Assembly (NCBI RefSeq): GCF_000002425.4
Contig: NC_037253.1
Coordinates: 15,415,884 to 15,479,883, forward strand
Source: Physcomitrium patens
Taxonomy: Eukaryota > Streptophyta > Bryopsida > Funariales > Funariaceae
Length of the DNA stretch: 64,000 bases
Direction of reading: 5' to 3'
Positions 6,366-54,851 of this stretch are shown here, in pieces. How positions within the stretch are numbered: the stretch's first letter is position 1; each line of letters opens with the position of its first letter. The translations under genes were made by a program, and so were the position numbers. The notes under the pieces were generated by a model that saw nothing but the letters and a program-made list of their open reading frames with translations, was not told the origin of the DNA and ran no database searches.

Positions 6366-6605
6366 AAAAATAAAGTCCTTGTAAGCCAAGGCATATGTCT
6401 TACAAAGTCAATACATGTTAGAGGTCTTGTAGAGCATTGCCACATAACTCCTAGTTAGATAGTATATATATAGGCAAGAGAGAAGCCCTCTTTACTCTTA
6501 TTAACTTGTTTCTTGCTTCTAGTCTAGATTTAAGAGTCTCTAGTTTCCTTTTCTTTTTTTTTGACAATAGCCATTTCAGTTTTATTTTAATATATATACT
6601 ATTTT
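6366..6605 (+). repeat. H 3' LTR fragment (F family)
   Basis: Matches the reverse complement of the F LTR: AAGCCAAGGCATATGTCTTAC, the TAGTTAGATAGTATATATAGG promoter segment, then CTCTTTACTCTTATTAAC (the predicted transcript start) and the AGTCTAGATTTAAGAGTC stretch. Both ends are missing: the start of U3 is gone with the internal deletion and the end stops near 6605. The transcript-start 11-mer is decayed. Confidence 0.75.
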
Positions 6606-7375: not shown

Positions 7376-7387
7376 GCTCTGATACCT
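7376..7387 (-). other. K primer-binding site (initiator tRNA-Met type)
   Basis: The minus strand reads AGGTATCAGAGC, eleven of twelve bases of the TGGTATCAGAGC site typical of plant elements primed by initiator tRNA-Met. It abuts the K LTR fragment that starts at about 7388. This contrasts with F, G and C, which have no such site next to the LTR. Confidence 0.7.
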
Positions 7388-8867: not shown

Positions 8868-9419
8868 TGTCAAGGACAAAGACTCGATGAGGGAAAATAT
8901 ACACAAAAAGGCTATCTCGATATAATAAGTCAAAATATAAACAAGTATGTATATTAAAAGGAAACTAGAATGGCTATTGCCACAAGACAAGAAACTAAAG
9001 ACTCTTGAACCTGGACTAGAAGCAAGAAAAGAGTTGACAAGAGTGAAGAAGCCTTCACTCTTGTTTCTATATATACTATCTAACTAGGGACTACGTGGCG
9101 ACATTCTATAGGACCTCCAATATGTGTTGACTTTGTAGGACACATGCCTTGACTTACAAGGCAAGTTTTTCTACGTGTGGGCCACATAGTTAGCTTGATC
9201 TTCAAGCTAACAACATGTGTGGCACATGGCCAACTTGTTGACCACGTTTCTAATCCAAAAAGTCAATTAAAGACACCTATGAAGTCAAAGCAGCATCTAC
9301 GAAGTTTCTAGGAAGCTTCTATATTAAATATTATAGAATTAACTTACTTTTATCTACTTTTACTTACTTCTACCTATTTCTATATGTAATTATTAGCTTA
9401 CATGATTATGGCCGTGATA
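8868..9419 (-). repeat. F 3' LTR
   Basis: 552 bp, nearly identical to 14687-15238. The first element-strand bases are TATCACGG (TG changed to TA) and the last are CCTTGACA. It contains the U3 heat-shock-like units near 9299-9319 (GAAgtTTC, GAAgcTTC), the TATA segment near 9068-9078 and the 11-mer TTGACAAGAGT (plus strand) at 9034-9044. Confidence 0.9.
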
Positions 9420-9977: not shown

Positions 9978-12900
9978 TCATCTTGATTTTGATGGATGTC
10001 GTTGATGAAAAACTTTGACTTTAGCTGATGCATTTGTTAGATTCCTAGATGGCTCCCATATGCATTCACTAATATCATATCCGCGCCAATGAACAAGATA
10101 TTCCAGCTTATTTCGGCGCCGCCTTGAGTCTAATATCTCTTCCACCTCAAATTCTTCATTATTATCTACTTTTGTAGGAGGCGGTGGCATTTGTCTTCTT
10201 CTTTGTATATCCACTGTCTTATATGGTTCAAGAAGAGACACGTGGAATAAGGGATGGATCTTCATTGACTCCGGTAGATGTAACCGATATGCAACTGGGT
10301 TGATCTGTTCAAAAACAGAAAAAGGGCCAAGCCTACGATAGTCCAACTTATCACAAGGTCGAGTAGTCTTGATATTGCGACGAAGTAGCCATACCTTATT
10401 ATCCACGTTGATTTGTGGTTGCTCCTTACGAAATAGATTTGCGTTTATCTTTTGTTATTCTTGAGCTTCCTTCAATTACGTCTTCATTATTGCATGTAAC
10501 TCTGACAACCGATTTGCCATATCTTCTGCTGCAAGATTATCAACTTTTGAAAAATTAAAAGTGTCAAGTCGTGGATGATAGCCATAATTGGCAAAGAAAG
10601 GTATTTGTTGCGTGGAAGAATGTACCGTATTATTATAAGCAAACTCTGCCAATGGCAGAAGGGTTGTCCAATCATCTTGTTGGTAGTTGATAGTACACCT
10701 TAAATATTGCTCCAAGACTTGGTTTACGCGCTCTGTTTGTCCATCAGTTTGAGGATGGAAAGCCGAAGATAGCTTTATGTCCACTTTTAAAATCTTGAAA
10801 AGGGTCCTCCAAAATCTTGACACAAATTGAGTTCCCCTATCTGATATGATATCTTTAGGTAATCCATGATAGCGATAGATATTATCAATGAAAAGCTTAG
10901 CTGTTTCTTCACCTGTGATAGATTTTGTACATGGCACAAAATGTGCCATCTTGGTGAAACGATCTACTATCACAAATATAGAATCATAAGATCTTGAGCT
11001 TGGAAGATCTGTGATGAAATCCATAGAAACAGAAGACCATGGTTGTTCTGGTATAGGTAATGGCTGAAGAAGTCCGTAAGGTCGATGACGAGGAATTTTT
11101 GATCTTGAACAAATATCACAAGATTGTACAAAGTCTTTGACTGACTTCCACATTTGTGGCCACCAAAAATCTCTTGATATGAGTTCCAAAGTCTTATTAT
11201 ATCCAAAGTGTCCTACTGTTGGAAAGTCATGACGTGCTTGAAGAACACGTAAACGTGCTTCTCCTTCTGGAACATATAGGCGTCCTTCAAAATATAATAG
11301 ATTATTCTTGAACTCGAACTTAGAAGGATCATGAGACTTGAAAGAATTATTCTTGATATCATAAACAAGAGGTCTGAGGACATACTGGACTGGATTTGCT
11401 TGAGAAAAGTTGAATCAACAGTCAATGTTGATTTCATTGCTCGGAGATGAAATTGCTCTGGTTTCAAGAGGACCGTTCTTTGTTGCTCAAAAGCTGCATC
11501 TACTTCTTTTGGTACAAAATAAGAACGTCTAGATAAGGCATCAGACAAACCTTGTTGTTTTCTTGGCCGATAAGTGATAATGAACTCGAATCTTGACAAA
11601 GACATACTCCAACGAGCTTGATGACGATTCAACACGCGTGCTGACATGAAATACTCAAGGTTCTTGTGATCTGTATACATAGTGACTGGAATAGAAGCGC
11701 CTTCTAGATAATGACGTCATTCTTGAAAGGAATCCACGATCGCAAGAAGTTCTTTATCGTGGATCTCATAATTGATCTCGGCTGCTGAGAATTTTCTTGA
11801 ATGAAAAGCTATTGGATGAATTTTGTCATGTAATCCCATTTGTGATAAAATTGCACCCAAGGCAAAATCTGATGCATCTGTTTCCATAAAAAATGCCTTG
11901 GAAAAGTCAACACGATATAAGATTGGTGCAGAGACAAACGATGTCTTCAAGGCTTCAAATGCTGATTCCGCTTCTTGATTCCATTGGAATTTATCTTTAC
12001 TAGTCAAGCGTGTAAGTGGAGCTGCAACTCGTGAGAAATCTTTGATGAAGATCTGATAGTAATTGGCAAATCCCAAGAAACATTGGACATCTCTTACTGT
12101 CCTTGGAATGTTCCAATCCATGATTGTTTGGACTTTCTTAGAATCCATCATGAGACCATCATTTGAAATGATGTATCCTAAAAAGTCAACTTGAGTAGTG
12201 TGAAATACACACTTTTCCATCTTGGCGTACAATCCTGCATCTCTAAGTTTTTGTAATACTTGACGAACATGTATTTCATGTTCTTCGACGTTCTTAGAAT
12301 AGATCAGGATATTGTCTAGATAGCAAACGACAAAATTGTCTAAGAATTCACGAAATACATCATTCATGAGATGTTGAAAAGCAGCTGGTGCATTCGTGAG
12401 TCCAAAAGGCATGACATTGTATTCGAAATATCCATACCTGGTTCGAAACGCAGTCTTCCATTCATCTCCTTCTTTGATCCGTACTAGATTATATGCTCCT
12501 CTTAGATCTATTTTTGTATAGATCTTAGCTTGATTCAATTGGTCAAGGAGTCCTGATATCAAAGGTAATGGATACATGTTCTTGATTGTGATCTTGTTGA
12601 GTCCTCGATAATCAACACACATTCGTAAAGATCCATCTTTTTTCTTTACAAATAGAATTGGAGCTCCTACTGGAGATTTTGAATGGCGTATAAAATTCTT
12701 CGCTAAATTCTCGTCAATATATGTCTTGAGTTCAACCAACTCATCTTGCGATAAACTGTAAATTGGTCCAAATGGTGGCTGAGTTCCTTCCTTGAGGTCG
12801 ATTGAACAATCATATGGGCGATGCTCAGGAAGAATATCTGCATTCTTTTTCTCAAAAACGTCTTGATACTCCTGATATTGACTTGGAATGCCACTTGAAG

Positions 12901-13076
12901 TCTTTACGTTTTCAGAAATAGGTGCAGCATAAATAGCAAAAGTTGATCCTTCTTTTGCTGCGTGTATAAATGCTTTTGCACCTATCAGTACGGATTTTAC
13001 TATACTAGACTTATAATTTTTTACTTGGTTGATAGAACTATTAATTACGCTCTGGGAAAAGTCAAGTTTATGCGAA
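9978..13076 (-). pseudogene. F pol: RT, RNase H, integrase, chromodomain
   Basis: Continues from the protease after one stop near 13079. The RT segment (13076-11717) has [33 protein letters not shown] and YLDN in place of YLDD. RNase H is interrupted by TGA in place of TGG (W) near 11717 and continues with [12 protein letters not shown] frameshift lies near 11370. Integrase has the zinc-binding CDICSRSK, then MDFITD, ISDRGTQF and GQTERVNQ, which carry the DDE residues. The GPF/C-terminal domain leads to a chromodomain (EVEEILDSRRRRNKLEYLVH, then WEPSRNL). A break at about 10470 separates integrase from the C-terminal domain. It closely parallels C's single 1156-codon pol. Confidence 0.9.
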
Positions 13077-13078
13077 TT

Positions 13079-14457: not shown

Positions 14458-14673
14458 TTAAACAAGCTCTGCCATAATGACACTAAGAAGGAAAATTTGT
14501 TTGATATTGCTCAAGAGAAAAGAAAAGAAAGACTTGATAACAAAGAAGATACTAAGAATAATATCAGTTTAGAAGTGGGTAATCCGCAAACTTCTAATAC
14601 GCTTATGACTTGTCAAGAGAAAGGGGTAATCCACTCTCACTCAAGAAAAACAAAGCTCTGATATTGTAAGTGT

Positions 14674-14684
14674 ACTCTTGTCAA
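14674..14684 (-). other. F self-priming site
   Basis: The minus strand reads TTGACAAGAGT, starting two bases after the end of the 5' LTR (14687). It is exactly complementary over 11 nt to ACTCTTGTCAA in the LTR (14853-14863), where transcription should start. The match ends sharply on both sides. The location is that of a primer-binding site, and no tRNA-complementary sequence abuts the LTR. A partial initiator-Met-like string TATCAGAGCT lies 23 nt farther in. Confidence 0.8.
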
Positions 14685-14686
14685 TC

Positions 14687-15238
14687 TGTCAAGGAGAAAG
14701 ATTCGATGAGGGAAAATATACACAAAAAGGCTATCTCGATATAATAAGTCAAAATATAAACAAGTAGGTATATTAAAAGGAAACTGGAATGGCTATTGCT
14801 ACAAGACAAGAAATTAAAGACTCTTGAACCTGGACTAGAAGCAAGAAAGGAGTTGACAAGAGTGAAGAAGCCTTCACTCTTGTCTCTATATATACTATCT
14901 AACTAGGGGCTACATGGCGACTTTCTATAGGACCTCCAATATGTGTTGACTTTGTAGGACACATGCCTTGACTTACAAGGTAAGTTTTTCTACGTGTGGG
15001 CCACATAGTTAGCTTGATCTTCAAGCTAACAACATGTGTGGCACATGGCCAACTTGTTGACCACGTTTCTAATCCAAAAAGTCAATTAAAGACACCTATG
15101 AATTCAAAGCAGCGTCTAGGAAGTTTCTAGGAAGCTTTTATATTAAATATTATAGAATTAACTTACTTTTATCTACTTTTACTTACTTCTACCTATTTCT
15201 ATATGTAATTATTAGCTTACATGATTATGGCCGTGACA
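14687..15238 (-). repeat. F 5' LTR
   Basis: 552 bp, TGTCACGG ... CCTTGACA on the element strand. It drives the element on the minus strand. It contains a TATA box at 14887-14894 and an imperfect inverted repeat (GACAAGAGTGAAG / CTTCACTCTTGTC) across the predicted start site. Confidence 0.9.
14853..14894 (-). promoter_or_regulatory. F promoter: TATA box and predicted transcript start
   Basis: The element strand carries TATATATA (14894-14887). The 11-mer ACTCTTGTCAA begins about 32 nt downstream of its first T, the normal plant TATA-to-start distance. The 13-bp arm GACAAGAGTGAAG just upstream and CTTCACTCTTGTC across the start form an inverted repeat with a 4-nt centre. The same arrangement is present in G and, with different sequence, in C. 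Confidence 0.65.
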
Positions 15239-17132: not shown

Positions 17133-17627
17133 TGTCACGGACACAAAATACAGACTTGAAATCTAACAAGAAGTTCAAGAAGAAGTGGCAAAACTAGATT
17201 AAACAGATGAGTACAAGAACAACACCAGAAAGGTGAGCTAGAACTCCAAGAGATGTGTTGTCGAGACTGAAGAACTCTTCAGCCTCGATCCCTATATATA
17301 CTCCTACTTAGGAAGCTTCTCGAGCTACTTCTATTAACTAGGAAGCTTCTAGAAGGTTCCAGAGGCTTCCTTTCTAGAAGGTTCTAGAAACTTCTCGAGC
17401 TACTTCTATTAACTAAGAAGCTTGTAGAAAGTTCCAGGGGATTCTTTTCTAGAAGCTTCTAGAAACTTCTCTTCTAGAAGGTTCCAGAGACTTCCTTTCT
17501 AGAAGCTTCTAGAAACTTCTCTCTAAAAGGTTCCAGAGGCTTCTCTTCTAGAAGGTTCCAGAGGCTTGTTTTCTAGAAGGTTCTAAAAACTTCTCTCTAG
17601 AAAGTTCTAAGGAAAATGTTCCTAACA
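17133..17627 (-). repeat. C 3' LTR
   Basis: 495 bp, TGTTAGG ... CCGTGACA on the element strand. Contains dense TTCnnGAA units, TATATATA at 17293-17300, and plus-strand TTGTCGAGACT at 17258-17268, an exact 11-nt counterpart of the priming site. Confidence 0.95.
17342..17600 (-). promoter_or_regulatory. Array of heat-shock-element-like sites in C U3
   Basis: Inverted GAA/TTC units in exact 5-bp phase: GAA-TTC-GAA-TTC-GAg-TTC at 17342-17369 and TTC-GAA-TTC-GAA-TTC at 17447-17469, with further groups to about 17600. This is the binding pattern of plant heat shock factors (nGAAnnTTCn repeated). It lies upstream of the TATA box on the element strand and is duplicated in the other LTR (about 23130-23395). 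Confidence 0.7.
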
Positions 17628-18144: not shown

Positions 18145-21100
18145 TCATCGAATTGATTTAGGTTTATCGGGATGTCGTTGATGAAACTCCTGTACCTTTT
18201 GTGGCGCATTTGCAAGATTTTCAGCTGGCTCCCACGTTCGCTCATTAATGTCATAGCCACACCAATGAACAAGATATTCTAACTTTCCCCACCTTCGCCA
18301 TGAATCCAATACCTTTTCAACCTCGTATTCTTCGTGGTTCTCGATTTCAATACTAGGTGGCGGACATTGGACTCTTCTAGAAAAAGATGACTCTCGATAA
18401 GGTTCCAACAGAGAAACATGAAAGACTGGATGTACCTTCATAGAAGCCGGTAACTCCAGCCGGTATGCCACTGGATTAATTTGCTTCTGGATGATAAATG
18501 GTCCCAATCTTTGATAGTCCAACTTATCACATGGTCGCTTGGTCTTGATATTTCGTCGAAGAAGCCAGGCTTTGTCTCCAACTTTGAAAGTAGGTGCTGG
18601 ATTCCGAAATCTATCTGCAGACATCTTATAGGATTCTTGAGCAGATTGTAATTGAAGCTTCAACATAGTTTGAAGCTCTGATAGTTGCTTCGAAAATCCT
18701 TCAGCTGCTGGATTGTTATTTATTGACGGACTCAATAAATCAAGCTTCGAATGATACCCATAGTTGGAAAAGAATGGTGTTTGTTGAGTCGAAGCATGGA
18801 GGGTGTTGTTATATGCAAACTCGGCTAGCGGTAGATATGCAGTCCAATCGTCTTGCTGATAGTTGATGCTGCATCGTAAGTACTGCTCCAAGACTTGGTT
18901 CACCTGTTCCGTTTGGCCATCAGTTTGAGGATGAAAAGCTGAAGAAAGCTTGATATCCACCTTCAATATCCCAAAGAGAGATCTCCAAAACTTTGACACG
19001 AACTGGGTACCTCGATCTGATATGATATCATCTGGTAGTCCATAATATCGATACACATTATTGAGAAAGAGTCTTGCTGTGACTTCACTAGACGATGTCT
19101 TCTTACAAGGAACAAAGTGTGCCATCTTCGTAAGCTGATCTACCACGACAAAGATGCTGTCAAATGAGTTTGATGATGGCAAGTCCGTGATGAAGTCCAT
19201 AGAAATTGAAGACCATGGTCGACGTGGAATTGGCAATGGCTGTAGAAGTCCATAAAGGCGATGCCGAGGATTCTTAGATCTTGAACAGATGTCACAAGAG
19301 AGGACAAAATCTTTCACATCCTTCCACATTTGGGGCCACCAAAAATCTCGGGAAATAAGCTCCAAGGTCTTGTTGAATCCAAAATGTCCCGCAGTTGGAA
19401 AATCATGGCGAGATTGAAGAACTCGGAGTCGTGTTAGTCCTTTTGGAATGTACAATCGCTCTTCAAAGTATAAAAGATCTCCCTCCACCTTCAACTTGTC
19501 GTCATTGGTACGTTGCTTGATATCAATGGCTACTGAATCTTTAATGGTCATAGCACGTACCTGGTTTAGGAAGTCAACATCAAATGATACAATAGTAGCA
19601 CAAAGTTGAAATCTCTCTGGCTTCAATAACGTTGTACATTGTTGATCAAACGCTGCTTCTCCAGCCTTTGGTGCAAGATACGATCTCCTTGATAAAGCAT
19701 CGGATAGTCCTTGCTGCCTTCCAGGTCGATAAGTGATAACAAAATCGAATCTAGATAGCGATATATTCCACCGAGCTTGACGTCGATTTAAAACTCGAGC
19801 CATCATGAAATACTCCAAATTCTTGTGATCCGTATATACGGTTACTAGATATCCAGCTTCTTCAAGAAAGTGATGCCATTCTTCGAAAGAATCCACTATA
19901 GCAAGAAGTTCCTTATCGTGGATCTCATAATTGATTTCAGCAGCAGAGAACTTCCGAGAATAGAATGCAACTGGATGGAGCTTCTTATCTTCACTCATTT
20001 GTAAAAGAACAGCTCTCAAAGCAAAATCTGAAGCATCATTTTCTAAATAGAAGGCCTTTGTAAAGTCCGGATGTACCAAAATTGGAGCTGTAATAAATGA
20101 TGTCTTCAAATCTTGAAACGCCTTCTTCGCCAAAGGTCCCCATTCCAACTTATCCTTGCATGTTAATCGAGTGAGACGAGCAGCAACTTGAGAATAATTC
20201 TTGATAAAGATCCGATAGAAGTTAGCAAAACCAAGAAAGTATTGTACGTCTCTAACCGTCTTTGGAACCTCCCAAGACATGATTGCTTCTACTTTCTTGG
20301 GGTCCATCTTCAAACCTTCTGTAGTCACAATGAATCCCAAAAATTCCATCTCCGTCTGGTGAAATAAACACTTTTCTAATTTGGCATATAGTCCTCGCTT
20401 GCATAGTTTCTCCAAGACCAAACGAACATGCTCTTCATGCTCTTCCTCGTTTTTAGAGAATATTAGAATATCGTCCAAGTAGATGACAAAAAAATCGTCG
20501 AGGTGTTCTCGAAAGATGTCATTCATCATATGTTGGAAAACCGCTGGAGCATTGGTAAGACCAAAAGGCATGACATTATATTCGAAATGACCATACCTTG
20601 TACGGAATGCTGTCTTCCACTCATCTCCTTCCTTGATTCGTACGAGATTATAAGCTCCCCTTAGATCAATTTTTGTAAAGATCTTTGCACGTCCAAGTTG
20701 TTCTAAGAGACTAGAAATCAAGGGTAATGGATAACGATTTTTCTTTGTCATCTTGTTGAGGCCTCGATAGTCCACACACATCCATAATGATCCATCTTTC
20801 TTCTTCACAAATAAGATGGGTGCTCCAGCTGATGATTTTGAATGACGAATGAAGTTCTTGGCTATATTCTCGTCGATGTACTTTCGTAACTCTGCCAACT
20901 CCGTTTGCGATAGATTGTAGATTGGGCCAAAAGGTGGTTGTGCTCCTTCTTGTAAGTCTATGGCACAATCATATGGTCGGTGTTCCGGTAGTATGTCGGC
21001 GTTCTTCTTTTGAAACACGTCTTCAAAATCTTTATATTGCTCCGGTATACTTGCTGTTGAGATCTTCTCCTCGGTAGTTGGAGCCGCACAAATGACAAAT

Positions 21101-21668
21101 GGAGTGCCTTCCTTAGATGATCTTATAAACGCTCTTGCTCCAATGAATAAGGATTTTTTTTTTCGAGGTTTTTTACTAGGTTTTTTCTTGGGTGGTTTTG
21201 TGGGAAAAGTCATCTTCCGCAACCTCCAATCTATCAATGGATTATATTTTTCCAACCAAGAAAGACCAAGAATAATAGGATTTGATGGGGTTCTAATAAT
21301 ATTAAAAATAATATGACTACTATGGTCTTTAAATGTTACTTCTATAGGTTTTGATTCATGGGTGATGCTACCAGACAATAAAGGTCGCCCATCTATGACC
21401 TCAACATGAACAGGTTTTGATTTTTGTACTAAAGGGATCTTATGACGCTTTGCAAATTCTTCGTCTAAAAAATAAGCAGATGCTCTTGAGTCTAGTAGTG
21501 CTAAGGTTCTCAGTTTTTGAGGGCCGATAAACAGAGGGATTGTAAAACAAAGTGCAGGTTGGGCAGAAAGAAAGGAACCTGATTGTTGTTGGGATATTTC
21601 ATTGTCCAGCCGCACGGTTCCTACTGTGGCTGGGCATCCTCGTTTTCCTGAACAAATACTCCCCTAGT
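18145..21668 (-). CDS. C pol polyprotein (PR-RT-RH-IN-chromodomain)
   Basis: A 1156-codon reading counted from a GTG at 21615. It has no ATG of its own and is open to about 21668, overlapping gag by about 45 nt in the -1 frame. Protease: LLDSRASAYFLDEEF (residues 40-54), with R where the catalytic triad DSG has [11 protein letters not shown] at 281, MPFGLTNAP at 349, YLDD at 379-382. RNase H: DASD at 527-530 and SDAL at 638. Integrase: H737, H743, C774, C777 zinc site; D807, D867, E903 with the 35-residue spacing. C-terminal chromodomain at about 1090-1150 (YEVEKVLDSW, LEYLVHWCGYD, TWEPAENL), which should bind methylated histone tails and target insertion. Confidence 0.95.
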
Positions 21669-22646
21669 CTTGACTATGCCTCGATTTTGCTTTTTGGGGC
21701 AGTTTCCGACTTTGTGGCCTTCTCCACCGCAATACAAGCATAAATTTTCTTCCATACATCGCTTTTTTTCTTCTATAGTAAGAGATTTGATACGTACCAC
21801 ATCAATTTGCATGTCTTCCACCTTTGAATGCGAATTCACACTGCTTGCCGACATAGTTGGAGCATGGCGAATTGTATGTTGTTTTGAGCGTTGGTCTTGG
21901 CGACGTTGGAATAGGCGATTATCACACTTCACAGCTTGGCTAATGGCTTCATTGAGCGTTCGTGGATCAGGAAGAGTTAACAGCAAATCCTTCACATCAT
22001 CTCTTAAATCCCAATAGAATTGACTCATCAACGCTTTTTCATCCCAATTGATGTCGCATACTAATTGCTTGAAATCCGAAGCATAGACTGATGTAGAACG
22101 CATCCCTTGTCGTAGCGACCGAGTCTTTGTTGTAGCCCATCGAACCTTATCGTGTTCACCAAATGCTTCCACAAATGCTTCCAAAAAGGTTTCGAAGTTG
22201 TTTAATATGGATGATCGTTTCTCAAACAAAGGAGCAAACCATGATAGAGCTTGTCCCGTAAGTAAGGTTCCAACAAGCCCAACACGTGACTCCTCCGTTG
22301 GATATTGTTCGAGCTGTAAAACTGTTATCAACCTGATTTGATTGACGAATCCTCGAAACTTAGAACGTGTTCCATCAAACTTATCTGGAAGGCTAACTCG
22401 AGGCTCCTTATGTTGTAGAACTAGTGGTTCTTGTTGAACCTGAGGTAAAGTTGTTTCTCCAAGTACCGAAATTTGAGGCTGGTGTAGTTTAGATTGTACT
22501 ATCCCAGATACTCCATCATTATGAAGCCTTGCCACAACTCCTTCAATCTCTGTAGTTCTTTGTGATAACGTAGCGAGGGCATTCATAATAGCATCTAACT
22601 TAGACTCCGAACTTTCTGTCATACTAATGTCTTGACCTCCGGCCAT
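21621..22646 (-). CDS. C gag
   Basis: 341 codons, ATG at 22646, uninterrupted. The N-terminal helix (SKLDAIMNALATLSQRTTEI) is coiled-coil-like. The gag core has DKFDGTRSKFRGFVNQIR and GQALSWFAPLFEKR at about residues 113-170. A CCHC knuckle CLYCGGEGHKVGNC lies near 305. It ends at a TAG inside the segment CAGCCACAGTAGGAACCGTG, shared with F, where pol is open in the -1 frame. Forms the particle and binds the RNA. The decayed gag L at 55770-56811 is a relative. Confidence 0.95.
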   Translation of the reverse strand: MAGGQDISMTESSESKLDAIMNALATLSQRTTEIEGVVARLHNDGVSGIVQSKLHQPQISVLGETTLPQVQQEPLVLQHKEPRVSLPDKFDGTRSKFRGFVNQIRLITVLQLEQYPTEESRVGLVGTLLTGQALSWFAPLFEKRSSILNNFETFLEAFVEAFGEHDKVRWATTKTRSLRQGMRSTSVYASDFKQLVCDINWDEKALMSQFYWDLRDDVKDLLLTLPDPRTLNEAISQAVKCDNRLFQRRQDQRSKQHTIRHAPTMSASSVNSHSKVEDMQIDVVRIKSLTIEEKKRCMEENLCLYCGGEGHKVGNCPKKQNRGIVKTRGVFVQENEDAQPQ

Positions 22647-22913
22647 TCTAAAAGAAGGAAAAAAATGACCCTATAAGAGGCAATATTGGTTTATAGGAGG
22701 GTAATCCACAACCTATAAAATGCCTTAAGAATTTCAAGAAGAGGGATAATCCACTCTCTCCAAGAAGAATAAGACTCCAATATTGTAACAGAAGAAGTAT
22801 CAGTTTAGAGGAAGGTAATCCGCAACCTCTAAAAAATGCTAGTATACCTTCAAGTAGAGGGGTAATCCACACTCTACTAAGAAAGAACTAGCTCTGATAT
22901 CTCAAGTTAGTGT

Positions 22914-22924
22914 AGTCTCGACAA
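22914..22924 (-). other. C self-priming site
   Basis: The minus strand reads TTGTCGAGACT, beginning two bases after the 5' LTR end. It is exactly complementary to AGTCTCGACAA in the 3' LTR (17258-17268) and with one mismatch to the 5' LTR (23052-23062). It differs from F's site at three positions, each compensated in its LTR partner. A TATCAGAGCT string occurs 27 nt farther inside. Confidence 0.8.
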
Positions 22925-22926
22925 AC

Positions 22927-23421
22927 TGTCACGGACACAAAATACAGACTTGAAATCTAACAAGAAGTTCAAGAAGAAGTGGCAAAACTAGATTAAACAG
23001 ATGAGTACAAGAACAACACCAGAAAAGTGAGCTAGAACTCCAAGAGATGTGTTATCGAGACTGAAGAACTCTTCAGCCTCGATCCCTATATATACTCCTA
23101 CTTAGGAAGCTTCTCGAGCTACTTCTATTAACTAGGAAGCTTCTAGAAGGTTCCAGAGGCTTCCTTTCTAGAAGGTTCTAGAAACTTCTCGAGCTACTTC
23201 TATTAACTAGGAAGCTTCTAGAAAGTTCCAGGGGATTCCTTTCTAGAAGCTTCTAGAAACTTCTCTTCTAGAAGGTTCCAGAGACTTCCTTTCTAGAAGC
23301 TTCTAGAAACTTCTCTCTAAAAGGTTCCAGAGGCTTCTCTTCTAGAAGGTTCCAGAGGCTTGTTTTCTGGAAGGTTCTAAAAACTTCTCTCTAGAAAGTT
23401 CTAAGGAATATGTCCCTAACA
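22927..23421 (-). repeat. C 5' LTR
   Basis: 495 bp, about 98% identical to the 3' LTR. It drives the element on the minus strand from TATATATA at 23087-23094; the predicted transcript start is near 23062. Confidence 0.95.
23052..23094 (-). promoter_or_regulatory. C promoter: TATA box and predicted transcript start
   Basis: TATATATA on the element strand, followed about 33 nt later by AGTCTCGATAA (AGTCTCGACAA in the 3' LTR). The hairpin-like inverted repeat GAGGCTGAAGA/TTCAGTCTC spans the start, as in F although the sequence differs. Confidence 0.65.
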
Positions 23422-41035: not shown

Positions 41036-42401
41036 TCAGACTATTTATTCCTATGTGTCAATAATATAAATATTTTATCTACACTCTATTACATCATATG
41101 TTTTTTCTTAAGCCATATAAGACAATAGATATACCAAAAAGATGACAACTCCCACCTCTTCCTATAGAAGTAGATAATAGCTAAAAGTATGAAATTAAAG
41201 AAGTCTTAGACTGAAGGCGGTGCCAAAATAAGTTAGAATATCTTGTTCATTGGTACAAATATAATATTAGTAAATAAATATAAAAGCTAATTAAAAATCT
41301 TATAAATATAATAAATAAAGTTGATACTTTTTATCAAAATTAAGATCAAGGATAAGAAATCTTTGATATAAAAGAACTACAGTTCAAGAAAGATTGCATT
41401 AATCTTCTATTCTTATTTGCAATTTTTTATATATTTGTGGACCTAAGAAGATAGAGAGCCATTAGCCAATAAATTCAACTCAAGAGTTATTATTTGTGGA
41501 CTTATTAGACAAAAGATTGTGATTATTGCAACCTTTAAGACAATATAATCTAAATGAAGACCTTCAAGAATGATATGTTCTTCCTTGAATAGATGGCAAG
41601 ATATATTACATTTTATATTACAATCTTGGAAGAGACTTTTGATGTTTGATAATTTTATTAGAATTAAGAACGATTTTTGAGGATATTACAAATATTTTAT
41701 TTAAAAAGAGTTATGAAGGCCTCAACAATGATTAAATAATAGGATGATTATCTCTCCATATAATAGGTCATTATCAATGGTGATGACGACCTATCAATTA
41801 TCTTGATAGATAATAAAGATTAGAGTATAGAACAAATATAATTTTCCGCATTTTAGATTTCTTCAACATGTAATCATTATTCGTTGTAGAACTTGTTTCC
41901 AAAAAGAAAAGTAATGTTACAAACATATATATTTATTCCATAATTACTATGATATTATAAATAGATAAAAATAGGCTAATTTGATAATATTCTTATAGAA
42001 AAACTTTCTAATAGCTTTGTAGACGTGGTTTCATCTTTATACATGTTTGTAGGTAATTGGTAGATTAGAAACTTGGCCAATAAGTTAATCATGTATTGTA
42101 TGTATTGATATCTTGTTGTACAAGCTAATAAAGTGGCGCATATATAAGAAACTTTCTTTGCAAGTTAAGATACATATCTTATAAATTAGACACATGTCAA
42201 AAGAGCTGTAAAATATTGCCACATAGCTTCTAATTAGATAGTATATATGGAGGCAAGAGTGATGCCTTCTTCACTCTTATCAATCCCTTTCTAATCCTTA
42301 GTCTTATTTCAAGATTTTTTAGTCTTCTTGTCTTTGATAATAGCTACTTTAGTTTTATATTATACTATCTTTGAATAATTTTCTAGCCTTTTCAAGTGAC
42401 A
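41036..42401 (+). mobile_element. F-family fragment I: chromodomain, extra ORF, 3' LTR
   Basis: Plus-strand 3' end of an F-like element. The end of integrase (KPYKTIDIPKR near 41110) leads to a chromodomain (VLD near 41205, NKLEYLVHWYKY near 41225). Sequence matching F's extra ORF follows at 41450-41880, including the NQQIQLKSYYL-like start and the LNND segment. A purine run and LTR 41915-42401 (TGTTACAAACAT ... AAGTGACA) complete it. All reading frames are destroyed. The 5' part is absent at the K junction. Confidence 0.75.
41915..42401 (+). repeat. I 3' LTR (F family)
   Basis: 487 bp. Contains TAATTAGATAGTATATATGG and CTTCTTCACTCTTATCAATC, the counterparts of F's TATA box and transcript start. 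Confidence 0.75.
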
Positions 42402-43180: not shown

Positions 43181-44029
43181 ACAGTTATATACCTTCTTCA
43201 TACTGGAAACTTCTTTCAAGACTTTCAATGTTGTCTCCACCACTGCACATTTGTCCTCAGTAGTATGTACACGTGTCCTTCCTTCATCACCATAATGCCC
43301 TCCCTACCTGGAAGCATGGGGAAGGGAACTATTCCCGTGACGTCATAACTTTTACTTCCACTGCTTGTTTGTTCATGACAAAAGAGCCACCGCAAATCTT
43401 CTACCCCCCACCAGTTGCGACCAAGGTGGACGTGGGGTTGGTCTCGGTAGGAGAGGGCATTCCGGCCTGGAATGGTCGGGGGGCCCACAGCGGCAGAGGA
43501 GGAAATGCAGCAGCAGGACGGGGGAGCGCAGGAGGGAAGGGGGAGTCCCACCGATGGAGTGGAGCGGTTGTGGTGGTGGTGACTGGTGAGACCACCGGGA
43601 ATAATCCCCCACCTTCCACACCTTTTCCCTTAGTGAAACTGACCTCTCCCTCTGGCTCTTGAATGTTCCGAAGACTTGTTGTACTTGACTCCTCTGATTC
43701 TCCTGCATCATCATTCAGCTGATTGCGGTTCGGGACCAGTTGCACAAATTTCCTTGGGACAGCCAGCCAGCCAGCCATTCAGGCAGGCCTCGCCGATTCT
43801 GGTTCCGTTTATCTCGTTGCCTCGGGGCTGGTAGTAGCAGTATCTTTTCAACCCCTCTCTGTGATCTGTCTTTCTACTTCACACACAACTATCGTTGCTG
43901 TCTTGTGCGAATCCTTTCGGTATCGTTGGTGGACCGGATACGTCACGATTCTTCTTTTATTATTCACTTATTCCTTACCTACGCCTCATTTCTGCATCGC
44001 CTCTTCTCTCTGCTGTTGTTTCTGTCACC
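43181..44029 (+). promoter_or_regulatory. NFS1 promoter and 5' leader region
   Basis: Composition changes sharply to GC-rich with CT-rich tracts (CTTCTCTCTGCTGTTG) and GC/GGT-rich blocks around 43430-43600. Overlapping readings in all frames here are by-products of that composition. No clear TATA box was identified. An in-frame open stretch extends upstream of the ATG to 43895 but has only a TTG there, so it is leader. Confidence 0.5.
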
Positions 44030-45457
44030 ATGGCGTTCTCAGTGTCTCGCTTCTTGCCCATTCTATGGCGCGCCCGAGCTGCCGCAGCTGCTTCTTATTT
44101 CCCCTTCTCTTCAGCTGCCGTTGGTGCCGGTGCTGGTTTTGCTGCTCCCTCCCGATCAAACTCCACGGCCGCTGAGGTTGTAGCTGACGAGGAGCATGTG
44201 GCTACAACTGCCCCTCCTGCTGTTATGATTAAGGGCGTTAAGATGGCGGGGCGCCCGCTCTACCTCGATATGCAGGCGACTTCTCCTGTTGATCCCCGCG
44301 TTCTTGATGCAATGTTTCCCTACTATATCGACCAGTATGGAAACCCTCATTCCCGTACGCACATGTATGGATGGGAAAGTGATGATGCGGTGGAGAAGGC
44401 CCGGGAGCAAATTGCCAAGCTCATTGGTGCCAATCCTAAGGAGATTATCTTTACATCAGGCGCTACTGAAGCTAACAATATAGCACTTAAAGGCGTGATG
44501 CATTTCTACAAGGAGAAGAGAAAGCACGTCATCACCACGCAGACAGAGCACAAGTGTGTCTTGGATTCCTGCCGTCACCTGCAACAGGAGGGATTTGAAG
44601 TCACATACCTGCCGGTCAAGAAGGATGGCCTAATTGATTTAGATGAGCTCAAAGCTGCTGTTCGACAGGACACGGGTATCGTATCAGTTATGACTGTTAA
44701 TAATGAAATCGGTGTCATTCAACCTATAGCAGAAATTGGAGAATTGTGTAGGAAGAACAAGATTTTTTTTCACACAGATGCTGCCCAAGCTGCTGGAAAG
44801 ATCAGTATAAACGTGGACGATTTGAAGGTGGACTTGCTGTCCTTGAGCGCGCATAAAATCTATGGACCCAAGGGAGTTGGAGCTCTGTATATGCGCAGGA
44901 GACCTCGCGTTCGCGTGGAAGCACAGATGAGCGGGGGCGGACAAGAAAGAGGCATTCGAAGTGGGACTGTTCCGACCCCTTTGGTTGTTGGGTTGGGCGC
45001 TGCATGCGAGATTGCTATGGAGGAAATGAAGCACGATGAGAAACACGTTAAGGCACTTACCGATCGGCTGTACCAGGGAATAACGTCCAAACTGGATGGC
45101 GTAATCCTCAACGGCAGTGAAGAGCATCGGTATGCAGGCAATTTGAACTTGTCTTTCGCTTGTGTGGAAGGAGAGAGCTTGCTTATGGGACTAAAGGAAG
45201 TAGCCGTTTCCAGCGGAAGTGCTTGCACTAGTGCAAGTCTCGAGCCATCGTATGTATTGCGAGCTTTGGGAGTAGAAGAAGATATGGCTCACACCTCCAT
45301 CAGGTTTGGAATTGGTAGATTCACGACAAAGGAGGAAGTCGACAAGGCCATTGCCCTTACCGTTGATCAGGTGACTAAGTTAAGGCAGATGAGTCCTCTA
45401 TGGGAGATGGTACAGGAGGGCATTGATCTAAAGAGAATTCAGTGGGCTCAACATTGA
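44030..45457 (+). CDS. NFS1: Mitochondrial cysteine desulfurase (NFS1/IscS type), intronless
   Basis: 475 codons from ATG at 44030 in the context CACCATGGCG; it is the first in-frame ATG. Converts L-cysteine to L-alanine and passes persulfide sulfur to the ISCU scaffold for Fe-S cluster assembly in the mitochondrial matrix. Residues 1-60 form an Ala/Ser/Arg-rich presequence ([20 protein letters not shown]). The class V aminotransferase fold follows: GNPHSRTH near 105, SGATEAN near 142, the PLP-stacking His in TEHK near 175, DAAQ near 250, the Schiff-base Lys276 in [10 protein letters not shown], and catalytic Cys399 in [13 protein letters not shown]. The C-terminal [13 protein letters not shown] contacts ISCU in homologues. 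Length matches plant NFS1 (about 450-475). No frame damage was seen, and flanking TEs stay outside it. Confidence 0.97.
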
Positions 45458-47679: not shown

Positions 47680-48238
47680 TGGCAAAGACAAGAACATGAT
47701 AAAGAAAAATAAACAAGTAAGACTTCTCTCATAGAAAGATGACAAAATAGAAACAACTTGATATATATATTAAGAAAGAAACTAGAATGGCTATTGCCAA
47801 AAGCCAAGAAAACTAGAGATCTTTGAAACTAGACTGGAAGTAAGAAAGGAGTTGACAAGAGTGAAGAAGGCTTCACTCTTACTTCTATATATACTATCTA
47901 ACTAGGGGCTATGTAGTGACGTTCTACAGGACCTCCAATATGTGTTGACTTTGTAGGATACATGCCTTGACTTACAAGGCAAGTTTTTCTACATGTGGGC
48001 CACATAGTTAGCTTGGTCTTCAAGCTAACAACATATGTGGCACATGGCCAACTTGTTGACTATGTTTCTAATCCCAAAAAGTCAATTAAAGATACCTATA
48101 AAGTCATAGCAACATCTATGAAGCTTCTAAGAAGCGTCCATATTAAATACTATAGAATTAACTTACTTTTACCTACTTTTACTTACTTTTACCTATTTAT
48201 ACATGTAATTATTGGCTTATATGTGTATGTCCGTGACA
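47680..48238 (-). repeat. G 3' LTR
   Basis: 559 bp, TGTCACGGACATAC on the element strand; the far end is decayed (TTTGCCA for CCTTGACA). Contains plus-strand TTGACAAGAGT at 47852-47862, the exact partner of G's priming site. Confidence 0.85.
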
Positions 48239-54280: not shown

Positions 54281-54291
54281 ACTCTTGTCAA
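54281..54291 (-). other. G self-priming site
   Basis: The minus strand reads TTGACAAGAGT two bases after the 5' LTR, the same as F. It is an exact complement of ACTCTTGTCAA in G's 3' LTR and has one mismatch to the 5' LTR (54466-54476, TTGATAAGAGT on the plus strand). Confidence 0.75.
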
Positions 54292-54293
54292 TC

Positions 54294-54851
54294 TGTCAAG
54301 GATAAGAACATGAGAAAGAAAAATAAACAAATGAGACTTCTTTCAAAGAAAGATGATAAAATAGAAATAACTTGATATATATATTAAGATAGAAACTGGA
54401 ATGGCTATTGCCAAAAGCCAAGAAAACTAGAAACCCTTGAAACTAGACTAGAAGCAAGAAAAGAATTGATAAGAGTGAAGAAGGCTTCACTCTTGTCTCT
54501 ATATATACTATCTAACTAGGGGCTATGTGGTGACGTTTTACAGAACCTCCACTATGTGTTGACTTTATAGGATACATGCCTTGACTTATAAGGCAAGTTT
54601 TTCTACGTGTGGGCCACATAGTTAGCTTGGTCTTCAAATTAACAACATGTGTGGCACATGGCCAACTTATTGACCACATTTCTAATCCAAAAAGTCAATT
54701 AAAGACACATGTAAAGTCAAAGTAGCATCTATAAAGCTTCTAAGAAGCTTCCATAGCAAATACTTTAGAATTAACTTATTTTTATCTACTTTTACTTACT
54801 TCTACCTATTTATATATGTAATTATTGGCTTACATGTGTATGCCCGTGACA
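54294..54851 (-). repeat. G 5' LTR
   Basis: 558 bp, TGTCACGGGCATAC ... ATCCTTGACA on the element strand, with TATATATA and the inverted repeat across the start as in F. Confidence 0.85.

What the first reader, a model, noticed from the sequence alone, without database searches (positions are those of the whole stretch)
14674..14863. Plant chromovirus F appears to self-prime reverse transcription, as Tf1 does
Seen: TTGACAAGAGT starts 2 nt after the 5' LTR on the element strand. It is perfectly complementary over exactly 11 nt to ACTCTTGTCAA in the LTR, with mismatches on both sides. That LTR 11-mer begins about 32 nt after the first T of TATATATA, where the RNA should start. Known: fission-yeast Tf1 and related chromoviruses prime with the first 11 nt of their own RNA. 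Inference: F uses the same mechanism. G has the same site, and its 3' LTR keeps the exact partner.
Basis: partly seen in the sequence, partly recalled or inferred. Interest (0 to 1): 0.92.

Follow-up and report, generated by a model that had tools for sequence, protein, structure and literature searches.

The report
Moss retrotransposon primes its own copying
A family of moss jumping genes appears to start copying itself with the first 11 letters of its own RNA instead of borrowing a cell tRNA; this was already predicted for its group, but comparing relatives gives strong support and shows a matching hairpin that may stop the wrong end of the RNA from being used.

Summary
F has TTGACAAGAGT 2 nt inside its 5' LTR, the exact complement of ACTCTTGTCAA 31 nt after TATATATA in both LTRs. 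The reading holds. Relatives keep the geometry with different 11-mers: over F, G, H and eight contigs the R x PBS helix pairs in 105 of 110 cells, 29 of them changed on both sides (each 0 of 500 shuffles as high). One relative, L002, fails. In the window's own genome 18 of 20 fetched young F copies match exactly. No TGG, as a tRNA PBS would need, lies near the LTR. The host looks like a moss and the element like the Tcn1 clade, for which self-priming was already predicted (PMC6317226). The addition is a 12-13-bp hairpin across the U3/R border in 9 of 11 elements. It changes together with the primer and covers 8-9 of its 11 bases. In full-length RNA only the 3' copy of the primer can carry it. 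I propose that it keeps the wrong copy of R off the PBS; that is inferred, not tested.

The parts
14687..15238 (-). 5' LTR of F (begins TGTCACGG, ends CTTGACA in element sense)
14887..14894 (-). TATATATA of the F promoter
   Evidence: R begins 31 nt after its first T
14853..14863 (-). start of R: ACTCTTGTCAA, inferred first 11 nt of the RNA (self-primer)
   Evidence: start site inferred
14855..14884 (-). U3/R inverted repeat: 13-bp stem, 4-nt loop; 3' arm covers -4 to +9
14674..14684 (-). PBS TTGACAAGAGT, complement of the self-primer
14685..14686 (-). 2-nt spacer between LTR and PBS
14561..14664 (-). leader RNA domain, predicted three-way junction (ATATCAG ... CTGATAT)
8868..9417 (-). 3' LTR of F
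9034..9044 (-). exact partner of the PBS in the F 3' LTR
11717..13078 (-). F reverse transcriptase / RNase H reading frame (piece)
10476..11414 (-). F integrase piece
9978..10454 (-). F SH3_Tf2-1 + chromodomain piece
22914..22924 (-). H PBS TTGTCGAGACT
23052..23062 (-). H 5' LTR partner AGTCTCGATAA (one change, G-U wobble)
17258..17268 (-). H 3' LTR partner AGTCTCGACAA (exact)
18145..21663 (-). H pol, open frame of 1172 aa with protease, RT, RNase H, integrase, chromodomain
54281..54291 (-). G PBS TTGACAAGAGT
54466..54476 (-). G 5' LTR partner ACTCTTATCAA (one mismatch)
47852..47862 (-). G 3' LTR partner ACTCTTGTCAA (exact)

Best explanation
F, G and H are chromoviruses of the Tf1/sushi type (Tcn1 clade) in a moss that start minus-strand DNA synthesis with the first 11 nt of their own RNA. 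The RNA begins at the A 31-32 nt after the TATA box. Those 11 nt fold back onto the PBS 2 nt inside the LTR, RNase H is expected to cut after nt 11, and the 3' OH primes copying of U5-R. Because the PBS of the next DNA copy is templated by the primer, PBS and R change together. Shown here: sequence, geometry, covariation, phylogenetic placement. Inferred: the start site, RNase H release, use of the primer.
For: Exact 11-mer at the stated place. Covariation over 11 elements, 10 distinct rows: 105 of 110 cells paired, 29 cells with both sides changed, covariation score 0.713; 0/500 shuffles reach any of these three; slid registers pair 32-46%. Every site with an exact hit in the blind scan of 46 loci (some are the same contig twice) plus the window has the 2-nt offset, with 31-34 nt to TATA. 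Young F subfamily: 18 of 20 fetched copies exact; H-like: 20 of 38 exact, 12 with one mismatch, 3 with two, 3 without a site. Free minimum-energy folds of R-to-PBS RNA contain the full 11-bp helix in 7 of 10 elements and 9 of its 11 pairs in F. RT tree: F and H lie among fungal, vertebrate and unnamed rows, six seed-plant rows apart at 100/99. Aromatic-cage chromodomain residues in F and H (by eye). No TGG in the first 30 nt after the LTR in F, G or H.
Against: L002 fails (4 mismatches). G and H have one mismatch each with their own 5' LTR, the copy that should supply the primer; both 3' LTRs are exact, so later mutation is likely. Two measures are weaker: the 8 of 11 doubly changed pairs were reached by 17/500 shuffles and the 14 further pair types by 64/500. 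Free folds of G and H contain none of the helix. 3 of 38 H-like and 1 of 20 F-like stretches gave no site. No RNA data. CpG decay may account for some changes.
Confidence: 0.93

Rival explanations
1. A tRNA 3' end primes, at a site beside the LTR or at the TATCAGAGC motif about 20 nt further in.
For: TATCAGAGC equals 9 of the 12 nt of the usual plant tRNA-iMet PBS TGGTATCAGAGC (recalled) and occurs in F, G and H.
Against: The TGG that would pair with CCA is missing. The motif is absent from L001, where the leader reads ATATTGGAGTC and its partner changes to match (CTGATAT to CCAATAT), so it is better read as one arm of a leader stem. The only iMet-type PBS with at most one mismatch in the window lies elsewhere, at 7376-7387. 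Host tRNA 3' ends were not at hand for a full comparison.
Confidence: 0.03
2. An internal piece of a tRNA (half-tRNA) primes.
For: Known in some plant Ty1/copia groups (PMC6317226, passages).
Against: Five different 11-mers are used at the same place and each matches the element's own R, L002 excepted; a host tRNA piece would not track R. Host tRNA genes were not available to scan (one search found none in the window).
Confidence: 0.02
3. The match is a by-product of the palindrome at the promoter: PBS and LTR merely share a repeated motif.
For: The U3 arm has the PBS sequence in sense orientation (6-9 of 9 positions identical in the 12 rows compared).
Against: L006 has the R/PBS match without any such palindrome. 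The R/PBS helix is 11-12 nt, starts 31-34 nt after TATA, and sits 2 nt from the LTR.
Confidence: 0.02

Closest known systems
Tf1 of fission yeast and the Tf1/sushi group
   Same: Chromodomain Ty3/gypsy elements; PBS complementary to the first 11 nt of the RNA (PMC7175516, PMC10085805, passages)
   Different: A second duplex of the Tf1 'pretzel' is visible by eye in four relatives (L004-L007) but not clear in F or H. The U3/R hairpin was not found described in the papers searched; Tf1 DNA could not be checked here.
Tcn1 clade of mosses and club-mosses (PMC6317226, PMC2864245)
   Same: Host group, chromodomain type, fungal-like RT, self-priming predicted for the majority of the clade
   Different: The passages I saw give PBS type by clade; here element-by-element covariation is shown. 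For SM-Tcn1 of Selaginella neither tRNA priming nor self-priming was found (PMC2864245). No named Tcn1 sequence was compared.
RLG1, the most abundant element of Physcomitrium patens (PMC7466625, passages)
   Same: Chromodomain gypsy element, very abundant; the own genome's size and matches on contigs C1-C27 fit that moss (recalled)
   Different: Identity with RLG1 was not tested against its sequence.
TAR lineage of plant Ty1/copia (Houba, Osr-1)
   Same: Self-priming predicted (PMC6317226, passages)
   Different: Ty1/copia, not chromovirus

Membership tests
Tf1/sushi self-priming chromoviruses | PBS beside the 5' LTR complementary to an 11-nt sequence at the expected RNA start | tested here: met
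Tf1/sushi self-priming chromoviruses | RNA starts exactly at the primer sequence | not testable with these tools
   only the distance to TATA (31-34 nt) supports it
Tf1/sushi self-priming chromoviruses | RNase H releases an 11-nt primer | not testable with these tools
   biochemistry needed
Tf1/sushi self-priming chromoviruses | three-duplex 'pretzel' fold (PMC10085805) | tested here: inconclusive
   central duplex in the free fold of 7 of 10; a second duplex (R after the primer with the LTR end) seen by eye in L004-L007, not clear in F or H; the third was not looked for
Tf1/sushi self-priming chromoviruses | RT groups with fungal and vertebrate elements | tested here: met
   careful tree; quick tree, with long branches. 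The vertebrate rows are unnamed as to element; 'sushi' is my label
Tcn1 clade | group I chromodomain with aromatic cage residues | tested here: met
   read by eye in the translations (Y or F, W, Y); chromo domain
Tcn1 clade | RT nests with named Tcn1 references | not tested
   no named Tcn1 sequence was at hand; a chytrid row lies in the same starred clade
seed-plant chromovirus clades (Tekay, Reina, Galadriel, CRM) | tRNA PBS and group II chromodomain | tested here: not met
   six seed-plant rows apart at 100/99, though no named member of these clades was in the tree

The most novel reading that the evidence does not exclude
A self-primed element has a built-in hazard: its PBS can pair with every copy of R, not only the 5' end. 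In these elements a covarying U3/R hairpin covers 8-9 of the 11 primer bases, and only copies of R that carry U3 can form it: the 3' end of the genomic RNA and the plus-strand strong-stop DNA. The 5' end of the RNA cannot. The hairpin would keep the PBS for the correct end, protect the 3' R from RNase H, and prevent fold-back of plus-strand DNA. This would be an undescribed part of self-primed reverse transcription.
Probability: 0.4. Interest if true: 0.72.

Novelty: new variant of a known kind. Interest (0 to 1): 0.5.

Why it matters
It gives covariation evidence for self-priming in land-plant chromoviruses, element by element; the published passages I could read predict it by clade. The host appears to be a laboratory moss whose main chromodomain retrotransposon is reported to be transcribed (PMC7466625, passages), so the start site could be tested with existing RNA data. 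The U3/R hairpin, if it works as proposed, would answer how a self-primed element tells its 5' R from its 3' R.

Tried and rejected
TATCAGAGC as a relic of a tRNA-iMet PBS: set aside, because it is better read as one arm of a covarying leader stem.

Seed-plant origin: rejected after the RT trees and the NFS1 gene. A first guess of a lycophyte host, from the best named NFS1 hit (Diphasiastrum, 85%), was dropped after the NFS1 tree put the window among liverwort, moss and unnamed rows (SH-aLRT 88) and the own genome showed matches on contigs up to C27 in about 470 Mb. The identity of the moss is not proven.

Viral-contig scans gave no relative. Rfam gave only two sub-threshold matches. L012 (10-nt match, same offset) and L024/L026 (one mismatch, opposite strand to pol) were not counted. 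L003, L008, L010, L011, L013, L014 and L016 gave no usable R/PBS pair. For L002 the R register was set wrongly at first and corrected; it fails in each. L094's double change was not used as proof, because the changed site is a CpG. Some H LTR bounds in scripts are one base off those given here.

Full report
1. THE OBSERVATION. Element F runs on the minus strand, with 5' LTR 14687-15238 and 3' LTR 8868-9417 (97.1% identical). Directly inside the 5' LTR the element strand reads ...CTTGACA|GA|TTGACAAGAGT|AC.... The 11-mer is the exact complement of ACTCTTGTCAA, which begins 31 nt after the first T of TATATATA in both LTRs. In F the match stops on both sides. The word occurs five times in the window against 0.07 expected. 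A dinucleotide-shuffled 5' LTR gave an equally good partner in 2 of 1000 cases, without asking for the right place. G has the same PBS; its 5' LTR partner has one mismatch and its 3' LTR partner is exact.

2. A SECOND CASE IN THE WINDOW. Element H (5' LTR 22927-23421, 3' LTR 17133-17627, TTTAG on both flanks; LTRs 98.4% identical) has an open pol of 1172 aa and is 70% identical in DNA to F in two 300-nt blocks. Its PBS is TTGTCGAGACT, again 2 nt after CA, and its 3' LTR carries AGTCTCGACAA 32 nt after TATA. Its 5' LTR copy has one change that leaves a G-U pair. F and H differ at three of the 11 positions, and all three are compensated.

3. RELATIVES. A search of prokaryote genome contigs for relatives of H pol returned 16 loci. 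I take them for eukaryotic contigs binned into bacterial genomes. Nine (L002-L007, L009, L013, L015) come from one Trichormus (Azolla symbiont genus) record, so a fern host is likely but was not tested. In eight of the 16 both R and PBS could be read: L001, L002, L004, L005, L006, L007, L009, L015. Seven are exact: AGTCTCGACAA (L001), AAGGCGAACAA (L004, L005, L009, L015), AAGGTGAACAA (L007), CTCTTGATCAA (L006). L002 has four mismatches. In a blind scan of 46 loci (L017-L046 repeat some of the same contigs) and the window, every exact hit belongs to these sites or F and includes the 2-nt offset; other registers appear only where the match runs to 12 nt. Over 11 elements (F, G and H with their own 5' LTRs, L002 included; 10 distinct rows), 105 of 110 cells pair, 29 cells are changed on both sides and the covariation score is 0.713, none of which any of 500 shuffles reached. 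Eight of 11 pairs have a double change (17 of 500 shuffles reach that), with 14 further pair types (64 of 500). Sliding the register drops pairing to 32-46%. Related rows make this fewer than 10 independent events. R ends in CAA in all rows but the H 5' LTR (TAA).

4. COPIES IN THE SAME GENOME. The own genome (470,438,890 bases, 101 contigs) answered two searches. The H query gave 65,027 first-look candidates, of which 39 were scored. P0038, whose RT region is 96% identical to F's, gave 66,387, of which 41 were scored; all 41 are 99-100% identical to it and 38 have no internal stop. F looks like an older copy of a family with many young members. From 901-base stretches upstream of pol, 20 of the 41 young F copies were read: 18 exact, 1 with one mismatch, 1 without a site in the stretch. 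Of the 39 H-like copies, 38 (all but H itself) were read: 20 exact, 12 with one mismatch, 3 with two, 3 without a site. One H-like copy (L094) shows a double change that keeps the pair, but the site is a CpG and two deaminations could do this.

5. WHAT IT IS. Pfam finds RT, RNase H, integrase, SH3_Tf2-1 and chromodomain in F and H. The chromodomain keeps aromatic residues at the cage positions (by eye). In RT-RNase H trees F and H sit with a chytrid row and unnamed metagenome rows inside a group that also holds vertebrate and other fungal rows, apart from six seed-plant rows (100/99; one search agrees, with long-branch warnings). No named Tcn1 or sushi reference was available. NFS1 (44027-45454, +) has its best named hit in a lycophyte (85%), but in a tree it lies among liverwort, moss and unnamed rows. 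Matches on C1-C27 (26 of these 27 contigs are listed, C12 is not) in 470 Mb fit the moss Physcomitrium patens (n = 27, recalled). So F is best read as a Tcn1-type element, and published work already predicts self-priming for the majority of that clade and for no other group of plant chromoviruses (PMC6317226, passages). An older paper found neither tRNA priming nor self-priming in the Selaginella element (PMC2864245, passages).

6. MECHANISM. The RNA 5' end pairs with the PBS, RNase H frees 11 nt, and DNA synthesis starts. This is the Tf1 mechanism as described in PMC7175516 and PMC10085805 (passages; the three papers on Tf1 that I asked for were not held). Folding R-to-PBS RNA without constraint gives the full 11-bp helix in 7 of 10 elements, 9 of 11 pairs in F, and none in G and H, whose 5' LTR copies carry changes (L002 not folded). 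In L004-L007 the sequence after the primer also pairs with the LTR end (read by eye), as in a flanking duplex of Tf1; in F and H this is not clear.

7. THE U3/R HAIRPIN. Between TATA and the RNA start lies the other arm of an inverted repeat: in F GACAAGAGTGAAG-GCTT-CTTCACTCTTGTC, where the 3' arm covers -4 to +9. In 9 of 11 elements there is a 12-13-bp stem with a 4-nt loop and a 3' arm that begins at -4 or -3; L006 and L002 lack it. Over those nine (the two misses dropped; G-U counted), 106 of 108 cells pair and 10 of 12 pairs have double changes; 2000 shuffles reached at most 87. In the genome copies (best of four registers, G-U counted) all 12 pairs form in 19 of 20 young F stretches, and at least 10 of 12 in 33 of 38 H-like stretches. 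Predicted energies of the hairpin (-13.3 to -23.0 kcal/mol over 12 rows, both LTR copies of F, G and H) exceed the primer:PBS duplex (-14.1 to -16.2; -8.2 for the mismatched G 5' LTR) in 11 of 12 rows; the exception is the G 3' LTR copy (-13.3 against -14.4). Because the 5' RNA end lacks U3, only the 3' R can be locked. I read this as a guard that keeps the PBS for the right end. Other readings are a DNA or promoter palindrome, or a small-RNA source. My searches (listings, and the passages cited here) showed no description of it, but most subscription papers are not in that library.

8. LEADER DOMAIN. About 9-17 nt after the PBS, F, G and L001 carry one copy and H two of a domain closed by ATATCAG/CTGATAT or ATATTGG/CCAATAT, enclosing two stem-loops. 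Of 38 predicted pairs, 12 have double changes in five sequences; some others are broken in one or two sequences, and I had cut the pieces at the closing arms.

9. VERDICT. The finding is real and correctly read. Its core was already predicted for this clade. The covariation test and the hairpin are the additions.

Noticed in passing
window 14561-14664 (-), 22640-22926 (-), L001:279-470: Structured leader RNA, predicted three-way junction with GGATTACC-type loops, duplicated in tandem in H; possibly a packaging or translation signal.
   Followed up: partly
L002-L007: Elements of the same RT clade on contigs binned with Trichormus, possibly from the fern Azolla; an earlier PCR survey found no Tcn1 elements in ferns (PMC2864245, passages).
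   Followed up: partly
L012:4812-4975: A more distant chromovirus, beside a basidiomycete row in the tree, shows a 10-nt R/PBS match with the same 2-nt offset and a hairpin overlapping the primer.
   Followed up: no
window 44027-45454 (+): Uninterrupted mitochondrial-type cysteine desulfurase (NFS1) frame inside a retrotransposon-rich stretch.
   Followed up: partly
G000: 41 near-identical F-family copies listed, 38 without internal stops, which suggests very recent activity.
   Followed up: partly
window 6377-6557 (+), 42149-42335 (+): Older LTR copies of the same family on the opposite strand, with changed primer sequences ACTCTTATTAA and ACTCTTATCAA.
   Followed up: no
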